From Candidatus Pelagibacter sp. (GTDB lineage: Bacteria; Pseudomonadota; Alphaproteobacteria; Pelagibacterales; Pelagibacteraceae): a DNA stretch of 6,313 nt. The stretch's first letter is position 1. The number at the start of each line of letters is the position of its first letter. Positions 3,554-4,740 of the stretch are shown piece by piece. The notes beneath the pieces are model-generated. The model made no database searches, was not told the DNA's origin, and saw only the letters and a program-made list of their open reading frames with translations. The position numbers were made by a program, and so were the translations under genes. The stretch covers positions 1-6,313 of the forward strand of contig JAOHJV010000022.1 of the NCBI GenBank assembly GCA_028100865.1. The letters run 5' to 3'.

Positions 3554-4656
3554 TAGTTTGCTCCTTTCACATAACTTTTTTTATAAAATGGTAATCCACA
3601 AATATTTGCTGGATATTTTTTTCCTCTTACTTCCAACAAAATTCTTGTATCTTTTTTTGAAAAAATTTGATCCACAAAACCCATCGCTATAGGCCCATTA
3701 ACACTTGGTCCAAAAGTGCCACTCGTAACTTCTCCAATCATCTCTTCACTTTCATTGTAAATTTTAGTTTTTTCTCTGGCAATCAGTCTTCCTTCTGGCT
3801 TGATACCAACTCTAATTTTTTTAGCTCCATCTCTAATTTGATTAATGATTTTATCAGATCCAATAAAATCTCCGTTATTTAGTCTCTCCTTAGAAATTGC
3901 CCATTTTAAACTGGCCTCAATAGGTGTTGTTTCAATACCAAGTTCATGTCCATACAAACACAGACCTGCTTCAAGTCTCAGTGTGTCTCTAGCTCCAAGA
4001 CCAATTAATTTGGCACCTTTTTCTAACAATTCTTGAGTAAATACTTCTGCTAATTCATTTGTAATTGAAATTTCAAATCCATCTTCTCCAGTATAACCAG
4101 ATCTTGTCACATATAATTTTTGATCTTTATAAGTGAACCAATTGCCTGACATAAAATTCAAATCTTCTACGTTTTCTAAAATTTGATTTAAAATATCAAC
4201 TGATTTAGGTCCTTGTACAGCAATTAAAGATCTTTGATCATCAAGAACCATTTTATACTTGTCTTTTAGTAAACCAGCTAAAATTTTAAAATCATTATCT
4301 TTACAGGCTGCATTTAAAATTATTAAAAAACCTTCTTCTAATTTAGTGATAATTAAGTCATCATGCACACCAGCTTTATCATTCATTAAAAAACTATATT
4401 TTGATGAATTCAATTTCAAATTTTTTAAATCTAGAGGAAAAATCTTTTCTAAATCTTCAGTCAAATTATCGTCACCATAGATAAATAACTGCCCCATGTG
4501 TGAAACATCAAAAATTCCAGAATTTGATCTAGTAAATTTATGCTCTTCAATAATACCTGAACTGTATTGAATTGGCATTTCGTAACCAGCAAACTCTACA
4601 AATTTAGCTTGATTAACTTGATGAAGTTTATTTAAAGATGTTTTTTTTATTTCCAT
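3553..4656 (-). CDS. gcvT: Aminomethyltransferase, glycine cleavage T protein
   Basis: GcvT takes the aminomethyl group from lipoylated GcvH, transfers the one-carbon unit to tetrahydrofolate as 5,10-methylene-THF and releases ammonia. The product has 367 residues, against 364 in E. coli. Family motifs in order are: FVEFAGYEMPIQYSSGIIEEH (19-39, cited as a region), GIFDVSHMGQ (47-56), GVHDDLI (96-102) with the conserved aspartate pair thought to act at the folate site, SGYTGEDGFEI (186-196), GARDTLRLEAGLCLYGHEL (221-239), TSGTFGPS (311-318) and GLPFY near the C-terminus. This spacing supports true GcvT rather than a dimethylglycine/sarcosine dehydrogenase fragment or YgfZ. It is the first gene of the gcv operon. 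The ATG at 4656 directly follows the glycine riboswitch and is itself one arm of a 12-bp inverted repeat. The only ribosome binding site is a weak AAGAG at 4667-4663. Confidence 0.97.
   Translation of the reverse strand: MEIKKTSLNKLHQVNQAKFVEFAGYEMPIQYSSGIIEEHKFTRSNSGIFDVSHMGQLFIYGDDNLTEDLEKIFPLDLKNLKLNSSKYSFLMNDKAGVHDDLIITKLEEGFLIILNAACKDNDFKILAGLLKDKYKMVLDDQRSLIAVQGPKSVDILNQILENVEDLNFMSGNWFTYKDQKLYVTRSGYTGEDGFEISITNELAEVFTQELLEKGAKLIGLGARDTLRLEAGLCLYGHELGIETTPIEASLKWAISKERLNNGDFIGSDKIINQIRDGAKKIRVGIKPEGRLIAREKTKIYNESEEMIGEVTSGTFGPSVNGPIAMGFVDQIFSKKDTRILLEVRGKKYPANICGLPFYKKSYVKGAN
3561..3567 (-). promoter_or_regulatory. Shine-Dalgarno for gcvH inside the 3' end of gcvT
   Basis: On the minus strand AAAGGAG is followed by a seven-base spacer and the gcvH ATG. 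It is the best ribosome binding site in the window and lies within the last codons of gcvT. gcvH may therefore initiate independently as well as by coupling, which would suit the need for H protein in excess over P and T (inference). Confidence 0.75.
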
Positions 4657-4740
4657 ATTAACTCTTTGTACCCATCTGTATATTTGCCTGAGAGTTTTGC
4701 TCCTTCGGCGAGAACTTAATCTCTTTCCAGAGTTAATATG
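4654..4740 (-). repeat. 12-bp perfect inverted repeat sequestering the gcvT start codon
   Basis: On the minus strand CATATTAACTCT (4740-4729) is exactly complementary to AGAGTTAATATG (4665-4654). The second arm contains the weak Shine-Dalgarno AGAG and ends with the gcvT ATG. The first arm spans the aptamer-1/aptamer-2 linker and the first bases of aptamer-2 P1. The repeat ends exactly at 12 bp, with mismatches on both sides. Three bases, TCT at 4731-4729, are shared with the conventional P1 of aptamer 2, so the full helix and that P1 compete. The complementarity is seen directly; the role as expression platform is inferred. Confidence 0.8.
4675..4731 (-). promoter_or_regulatory. Glycine riboswitch aptamer 2 (downstream)
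   Basis: The conventional P1 is short: TCTG (4731-4728) with CAGA (4678-4675), giving four base pairs. The core reads GGAAAGAG, a short hairpin region ending TTCTC, then GCCGAAGGAGCAA, then CTCTCAGGCAAA. Only two bases (AA) separate GGAGCAA from CTCTCAGG, whereas aptamer 1 has twelve, so the helix that usually emerges there is missing. Its P1 5' strand overlaps the sequence able to pair with the gcvT start codon. Confidence 0.88.

What the first reader, a model, noticed from the sequence alone, without database searches (positions are those of the whole stretch)
4654..4740. Glycine riboswitch whose expression platform appears to be a 12-bp helix directly capping the gcvT start codon
CATATTAACTCT (4740-4729) and AGAGTTAATATG (4665-4654, ending in the gcvT ATG) are perfectly complementary. 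The arm also masks the only Shine-Dalgarno-like bases. The anti-start arm sits in the inter-aptamer linker and runs three bases (TCT) into the 5' strand of aptamer-2 P1 (TCTG/CAGA). One model is a glycine-activated switch: without glycine the 12-bp helix hides the start codon; with glycine P1 and the aptamer-aptamer contacts claim the shared bases and linker, freeing the ATG. The opposite is also possible: nine pairs (CATATTAAC/GTTAATATG) could persist beneath P1, and glycine would then stabilise an OFF state. The perfect match ending exactly at the ATG is hard to ascribe to chance. It would be a very compact platform, with no separate antiterminator or anti-SD hairpin.
Basis: partly seen in the sequence, partly recalled or inferred. 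Interest (0 to 1): 0.72.

Follow-up and report, generated by a model that had tools for sequence, protein, structure and literature searches.

The report
SAR11 glycine switch masking start codon
In SAR11 ocean bacteria, the RNA switch that senses glycine ahead of the glycine-breakdown genes carries a strand that pairs with the gene's own start signal, a pairing that evolution has preserved, so the switch probably works by hiding and freeing that start signal.

Summary
On the minus strand, 4740-4729 and 4665-4654 are exact 12-nt complements ending at the gcvT ATG. The window is SAR11-type DNA and carries a tandem glycine riboswitch (RF00504) before gcvT-gcvH-gcvP. In relatives the helix covaries: 29 representatives, 96.5% of 346 cells paired, 5 pairs changed on both sides, 0/500 shuffles equal. 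All 125 distinct SAR11 gcvT leaders parsed keep at least 9 contiguous pairs. It is significant in 133/142 SAR11 leaders but 3/44 leaders from outside the SAR11 set. Published SAR11 transcripts begin at aptamer-1 P1 (PMC5069720), so the leader-linker P0/kink-turn of most tandem glycine riboswitches has little or no leader to form with, while the ON-type P5 pseudoknot is present. Best reading: a translational ON switch in which the linker plus the 5' strand of aptamer-2 P1 masks the start site without glycine. Direction is inferred; an OFF switch with nine pairs persisting is not excluded.

The parts
4734..4824 (-). Glycine aptamer 1 (RF00504); P1a pairs 4814-4811 with 4746-4743
   Evidence: cmscan 60.6 bits, E 4.5e-11; P1a columns invariant in 29 of 29
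4666..4731 (-). Glycine aptamer 2; P1b = UCUG 4731-4728 with CAGA 4678-4675
   Evidence: cmscan on 4600-4733 alone: 40.0 bits against a cut-off of 32, reported range 4666-4733; P1b four pairs invariant in 29 of 29
4729..4740 (-). Anti-start arm: linker CATATTAAC (4740-4732) plus TCT (4731-4729) of the 5' strand of P1b
   Evidence: exact complement; covariation with the start arm
4654..4665 (-). Start arm AGAGTTAATATG: weak SD (AGAG), spacer and gcvT start codon 4656-4654
4769..4774 (-). 5' half of P5 pseudoknot candidate (UACCCA, aptamer-1 P3b loop)
   Evidence: complementary to 4674-4669; covarying variants in relatives; P5 known from the literature
4669..4674 (-). 3' half of P5 pseudoknot candidate (UGGGUA), directly after P1b
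4823..4850 (-). Weak promoter candidate TTGACC-16-TAAGTT, putting the transcript start near the first base of P1a
   Evidence: best -10 ends 6-16 nt before GGGAGAG in 81 of 121 gcvT and 26 of 30 glcB leaders; shuffled 17-18%; the general scan found none on this strand
3553..4656 (-). gcvT coding sequence
   Evidence: NCBIfam gcvT equivalog 331.5 bits against 235.85
3173..3553 (-). gcvH coding sequence
   Evidence: NCBIfam gcvH 151.6 bits against 115.85
313..3171 (-). gcvP coding sequence (ATG start chosen by eye; the ORF list gives a TTG at 3195)
   Evidence: NCBIfam gcvP 1429 bits

Best explanation
This is the expression platform of a translational, probably glycine-activated (ON), tandem glycine riboswitch typical of SAR11. 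Without glycine, the inter-aptamer linker plus the 5' strand of aptamer-2 P1 (CAUAUUAACUCU) pairs with the SD/start region of gcvT (AGAGUUAAUAUG), so P1b stays open and ribosomes cannot start. With glycine, the two aptamers fold and dock: UCUG is taken into P1b, the following UGGGU pairs with the aptamer-1 loop (P5), the linker becomes the bridge between two docked aptamers, and the start arm is released. Shown: the complementarity, its conservation and covariation, and its overlap with P1b. Inferred: that glycine breaks the helix, the direction (ON), and that translation is what is regulated.
For: Covariation: 29 representatives, 96.5% of 346 cells paired, 5 of 12 pairs with both-sided changes, 19 cells changed on both sides, 0/500 shuffles as high; slid controls 35-44% paired and at most 2 such pairs. 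RNAalifold picks this helix and not P1b on its own. 125 of 125 distinct gcvT leaders parsed keep at least 9 contiguous pairs, 122 of them at least 11. Of 12 SAR11 loci that the script missed, 8 are gcvT leaders reaching into the gene and all 8 keep the helix by eye. Distinct arm pairs: ATATTAAC/GTTAAT, ATAATAAC and GTAATAAC/GTTATT(AC), ATTAAAAC/GTTTTAAT, ATAAAC/GTTTAT. The paralogous glcB leaders use other letters in the same place (typically GCATAACACT/AGTGCTATGC with one internal mismatch; 27 of 30 have a form of it), and one glcB leader, L247, carries the gcvT-type letters on both arms (by eye). Contrast: 133/142 SAR11 leaders at p<=0.05 against 3/44 from outside the SAR11 set. ON logic: P5 is frequent in ON and absent in OFF tandems, and the gcv riboswitches cited there (B. 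subtilis, S. griseus, Burkholderia, N. gonorrhoeae) are ON (PMC13104608 Discussion part 1); the SAR11 riboswitch is called 'glycine-activated' in the title of Tripp et al. 2009 (seen only in reference lists). In the window the lowest-energy fold is the masked state (-38.6 kcal/mol).
Against: No probing or reporter data. By secondary structure alone, a state with P1b plus the nine linker pairs (-33.5) is better than P1b with a free start arm (-29.7) in the window and in 15 of 17 sequences tried, which would keep the start masked. P1b's four core pairs never vary, so its competition with the helix cannot be tested by covariation. AGAG conservation could come from its SD role. In glcB 24 of 30 leaders share only one base with P1b, L137/L177 lack the start pairing and L239 has it only weakly. 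The tree needs only about four changes at two variable linker bases, so independent double changes are few.
Confidence: 0.7

Rival explanations
1. OFF switch: nine pairs (CAUAUUAAC/GUUAAUAUG) persist beneath P1b, and glycine, by fixing P1b, stabilises the masked start.
For: P1b plus nine pairs is 3.8 kcal/mol better than P1b alone in the window and better in 15 of 17 sequences. In glcB the overlap with P1b is mostly one base, so the two helices can nearly coexist.
Against: The full helix without P1b is better still in all 17. The pairing would cross the P5 pseudoknot, which is present with covarying variants, and P5 marks ON switches. Repressing glycine cleavage when glycine is high runs against the known logic of gcv riboswitches.
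Confidence: 0.15
2. Static masking: the helix lowers gcvT translation or couples it to something else (mRNA decay, temperature, ribosome standby) without responding to glycine.
For: Nothing here measures response to glycine.
Against: The arm lies between two glycine aptamers and overlaps P1b in gcvT (110 of the 123 leaders with a called start use all three bases of TCT). The same layout recurs at glcB.
Confidence: 0.08
3. The complementarity is a DNA inverted repeat, such as an operator, rather than an RNA helix.
For: Covariation alone preserves either.
Against: 15 of the 346 cells are G-U pairs (GU/UG entries: 2+7+1+2+3), against 12 non-pairs; a DNA repeat gains nothing from G-T. The arms lie inside the transcript (PMC5069720) at an aptamer and a start codon.
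Confidence: 0.03
4. Chance complementarity in an AT-rich genome.
For: SAR11 DNA is AT-rich.
Confidence: 0.01

Closest known systems
Tandem glycine riboswitch RF00504, gcvT ON type (Bacillus subtilis, transcriptional)
   Same: Two glycine aptamers, one platform, gcvT operon, presumed ON
   Different: B. subtilis uses an intrinsic terminator and needs the leader-linker kink-turn (PMC5666159 passages). Here no terminator-like site was found, little or no leader is transcribed, and the linker pairs with the start site.
Neisseria gonorrhoeae gcvT translational tandem glycine ON switch (PMC13104608)
   Same: Translational ON; start region masked by riboswitch nucleotides without glycine; kink-turn/P0 reported as apparently absent, P5 possible (passages, Discussion part 1)
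   Different: There P3a, P3 and P1 nucleotides of aptamer 2 mask the site, with 62 nt between P1 and the start codon and a platform sequence not well conserved among Neisseria. Here the linker plus the P1b 5' strand masks it, with the start arm beginning 8-17 nt after P1b and kept in every SAR11 gcvT leader examined.
SAR11 glcB (malate synthase) glycine riboswitch (PMC2211319; Tripp 2009)
   Same: Same host group, same aptamers, same linker-to-start layout with other letters in 27 of 30 leaders
   Different: One internal A.C (or A.A) mismatch and usually one shared base; Tripp 2009 could not be read here.
P0/kink-turn leader-linker element of tandem glycine riboswitches
   Same: Also engages the linker
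   Different: P0 pairs the linker with a 5' leader (over 90% of tandems, PMC5666159 passages). In SAR11 the transcript starts at P1, some up to 15 nt upstream (PMC5069720 passages), and the linker's partner is the start codon region.

Membership tests
Glycine riboswitch aptamer RF00504, tandem form | Both aptamers score above the Rfam cut-off of 32 bits | tested here: met
   60.6 bits and 40.0 bits when given alone
Glycine riboswitch aptamer RF00504, tandem form | Binds glycine | not testable with these tools
   No binding assay
ON-type (gcv) tandem glycine riboswitch, as summarised from Torgerson et al. in PMC13104608 | P5 polyC:polyG pseudoknot between aptamer-1 P3b loop and the tract after aptamer 2 | tested here: met
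   Complementary in the window (UACCCA/UGGGUA); 4 or more pairs possible in 121 of 125 gcvT and 31 of 31 glcB leaders, with covarying variants. No shuffle control was run for this feature
ON-type (gcv) tandem glycine riboswitch | Three G-C pairs in the binding pocket of aptamer 1 or both | tested here: inconclusive
   Taking columns 34-36/69-71 as that helix: 25 of 29 have three G-C pairs in aptamer 1; 4, the window among them, have one A-U. The window's aptamer 2 has three
Canonical tandem with P0/kink-turn | Leader-linker P0 helix with kink-turn | tested here: inconclusive
   Published SAR11 transcripts start at the first base of P1, some up to 15 nt upstream (PMC5069720 passages). Leader-linker pairing is at chance in SAR11 (6/154 at p<=0.05), but the same test also misses it in the other leaders (1/45), so it is insensitive. 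A rough motif pair of my own is in 0/145 SAR11 and 11/45 others
Translational riboswitch (start-site masking) | Platform pairs with SD/start and covaries | tested here: met
Translational riboswitch (start-site masking) | Ligand changes accessibility of the start site | not testable with these tools
   Needs probing or a reporter

The most novel reading that the evidence does not exclude
SAR11 has rebuilt the tandem glycine riboswitch: the 5' leader and kink-turn are gone, and the freed inter-aptamer linker itself has become the expression platform by pairing with the start codon region, so aptamer-aptamer docking (through P1b, P5 and the stretched linker) rather than a separate hairpin is what opens the start codon. 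The same design serves two genes (gcvT and glcB) with different letters.
Probability: 0.4. Interest if true: 0.66.

Novelty: new variant of a known kind. Interest (0 to 1): 0.5.

Why it matters
SAR11 is among the most abundant cell groups in the sea (general knowledge), and its glycine riboswitch has been in print since 2007-2009. If this platform is right, it is a covariation-supported mechanism for that switch. It also offers natural tandem glycine riboswitches that appear to work without the leader-linker kink-turn whose loss abolishes regulation in B. subtilis, which bears on what the tandem architecture is for.

Tried and rejected
Rejected: chance, a DNA operator (G-U cells), transcription attenuation (no terminator-like site). 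Leader-linker (P0-like) pairing as an anti-masking element was tested and is at chance in SAR11 (6/154 at p<=0.05), but the test is insensitive (1/45 in the other leaders). Re-pairing linkers and start regions of different gcvT clades scored 9.8 against 11.8 observed, a modest gap because the clades differ at few positions; the pair counts are the better test. The GcvT tree (141 proteins, 139 columns) is poorly resolved (81 of 138 inner branches open) and gives at least 4 changes of the two linker bases at -5/-4, so both-sided changes arose a few times, not 19.

Script errors mended: one search had a wrong length limit and found 7 loci (corrected); the start calling chose internal methionines (replaced by the start-free test); one search called two starts wrongly (L134, L147), left L145 and L222 without a start and mis-anchored 10 leaders for the spacing after P1b (all corrected, whose start-codon and spacing counts are the ones given).

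Limits: no 3D modelling of whether nine linker pairs fit the docked state; no phylogeny-aware covariation statistic. The window's own genome is not held. L015 (long insert in aptamer 1) was left out of alignment A1, so 29 of 30 representatives were counted; its arms pair by eye. One search parsed 188 of 200 SAR11 loci; the other 12 were read by eye (8 gcvT with the helix, L247 and L255 glcB, L256 and L089 cut off). Energies are for 17 chosen sequences of 157.

Papers: passages only of PMC2704228, PMC6944388, PMC12060979, PMC5069720, PMC9481103, PMC2211319, PMC3766115, PMC2258182, PMC5666159; passages and Discussion part 1 of PMC13104608. Tripp 2009 and Torgerson 2018 and 2020 are not held, so 'not in print' is not claimed; in the listings of searches and the passages I read, I saw no description of this pairing.

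Full report
What is there. The window is SAR11-type DNA: its GcvT is up to 78% identical to Pelagibacteraceae proteins. On the minus strand it reads EamA-type transporter (ends at 4847), tandem glycine riboswitch, gcvT, gcvH, gcvP. The same order (membrane protein, glycine riboswitch, gcvT) is listed for Ca. Pelagibacter ubique HTCC1062 in PMC2704228 (passages). Aptamer 1 scores 60.6 bits and aptamer 2 scores 40.0 bits when given alone.

The observation. The two 12-nt arms are exact complements at the stated coordinates. Shuffles of the leader never reach 12 in 20,000 and reach 11 three times. In 79 SAR11 loci, 28 of 138 long ORFs have 11-12 complementary bases upstream of their start and all 28 have riboswitch motifs there; the 110 others reach at most 8.

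Conservation. RF00504 was found in 277 of 397 genomes of the order and 40 of 61 of the genus, with filters that lose weak matches. From these, and later draws I held 200 SAR11 loci including the window. A script parsed 188 (157 gcvT, 31 glcB), and the other 12 were read by eye. After removing duplicates, 125 gcvT leaders all carry a contiguous helix of 9-13 pairs between linker+TCT and the start region (77 of 12 pairs, 26 of 13, 19 of 11, 2 of 10, 1 of 9). Of the 123 whose start could call, 110 use all three bases of TCT, 12 two, 1 one. With corrected starts the whole start codon lies in the helix in 102 of 125, two of its bases in 8, and the helix ends 0-2 nt before it in 15. One of these 15, L145, still has an ATG in the helix, but a stop codon follows it and gcvT seems to start at the next codon. 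So the conserved thing is masking of the SD/start region, not exact capping of the ATG.

Covariation. On 29 representatives (alignment A1, made without reference to the helix) 96.5% of 346 cells pair, five of twelve pairs show changes on both sides, and none of the five measures is reached in 500 shuffles. Slid controls pair in 35-44% of cells. RNAalifold chooses this helix over P1b. There are 15 G-U cells against 12 broken ones, which suits RNA better than a DNA inverted repeat. The number of independent double changes is small: the GcvT tree needs at least four changes at two of the linker positions and is poorly resolved. P1b does not vary in its four core pairs, so its competition with the helix cannot be tested this way.

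Paralogue. SAR11 also has a glycine riboswitch before malate synthase (glcB; PMC2211319 passages). I call the downstream gene glcB by eye from its N-terminus and the literature. Its linker and start region pair in the same place with different letters, typically GCATAACACT with AGTGCTATGC and one internal A.C mismatch (17 of 30; 27 of 30 have this or a close variant; alignment of 13). L247, a glcB leader, has gcvT-type letters on both arms. L137 and L177 lack the pairing and L239 has it weakly, so it is not universal there.

Specificity. In this sample it is a SAR11 design.

Leader. PMC5069720 (passages) reports SAR11 glycine-riboswitch transcripts beginning at the first base of P1, some up to 15 nt upstream, linked by assembly to gcvT. 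Promoter-like sites agree: the best -10 ends 6-16 nt before GGGAGAG in 81 of 121 gcvT and 26 of 30 glcB leaders, against 17-18% in shuffles. [quoted passage not shown] subtilis (PMC5666159 passages), therefore has little or no leader to form with. My direct test for it is insensitive; a rough motif pair occurs in 11 of 45 other leaders and 0 of 145 SAR11 ones. PMC13104608 also reports its apparent absence in N. gonorrhoeae.

P5. The tract right after P1b (UGGGUA) is complementary to the aptamer-1 loop (UACCCA), with covarying variants in relatives, such as ACCCTA/TAGGGT and TGCTCA/TGAGCG; four or more pairs are possible in 121 of 125 gcvT and 31 of 31 glcB leaders (no shuffle control). This is the known P5 pseudoknot, frequent in ON and absent in OFF tandems according to PMC13104608 (citing Torgerson et al.).

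Energies. For the window the lowest fold is the masked state, -38.6 kcal/mol; P1b plus nine linker pairs is -33.5; P1b with a free start arm is -29.7. Among 17 chosen sequences the masked state is the best of the three in all; it equals the unconstrained minimum in 13 and lies 0.4-1.6 above it in 4. The free state is 3.2 to 14.6 kcal/mol above the masked one. The calculation leaves out P5 (-5.8 for ACCCA/UGGGU as a bare duplex), docking and glycine. These energies thus support masking without ligand, but they do not show that glycine opens it; P1b-plus-nine being better than the free state in 15 of 17 is the main point for the OFF rival.

Mechanism. I take it as a translational ON switch, with the steps marked shown and inferred in Best explanation. 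Direction rests on the known logic of gcv glycine riboswitches, on P5, and on the title of Tripp et al. 2009, which calls the SAR11 riboswitch glycine-activated. Novelty is limited: class, host and gene are long known, and Tripp 2009 could not be read. What may be new is the identity of the platform, its covariation support, and its link to the missing leader.

Noticed in passing
L255 (glcB leader): A decayed glycine riboswitch: the aptamer-1 core is altered (GCCAGAAG for GCCGAAGG, CTCTAAGG for CTCTCAGG), yet the linker and start arms are kept; possible loss or change of ligand.
   Followed up: no
L137, L177 (glcB leaders): The linker lacks the anti-start letters, but the start arm GGTGCTAT remains and is complementary by eye to TAGCGCC in aptamer 1 (one G-U), a possible alternative masking partner in glcB.
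   Followed up: no
L178, L185, L207, L243, L253: gcvT leaders whose aptamer 1 has GGGAGAATGG... and CCTGCCGAAGG instead of the usual GGGAGAGAC start of P2, a shared aptamer variant.
   Followed up: no
L290, L294 (small AT-rich genomes, order not told): The linker end plus 5' strand of aptamer-2 P1 (GACTCT) is complementary to an SD-like GGAGTC a few bases before ATG; not significant on its own (p 0.24, 0.33) but a possible simpler form of the platform.
   Followed up: no
L032, L054, L055 (Bradyrhizobium): AGCATC of linker/P1b is complementary to GATGCT, which holds an ATG that looks like the gcvT start; 6-7 pairs, not significant (p 0.24-0.60).
   Followed up: no
L145: The ATG in the helix is followed by a stop codon (ATGTAA) and gcvT seems to start at the ATG directly after it; the helix is kept although the start moved.
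   Followed up: partly
window 5725-6312, 1-300, 4847-5725: Neighbours: a carboxyltransferase-domain protein (PxpC/urea amidolyase-related, cut by the window end), an NAD(P)/FAD-dependent oxidoreductase fragment, and an EamA transporter.
   Followed up: no
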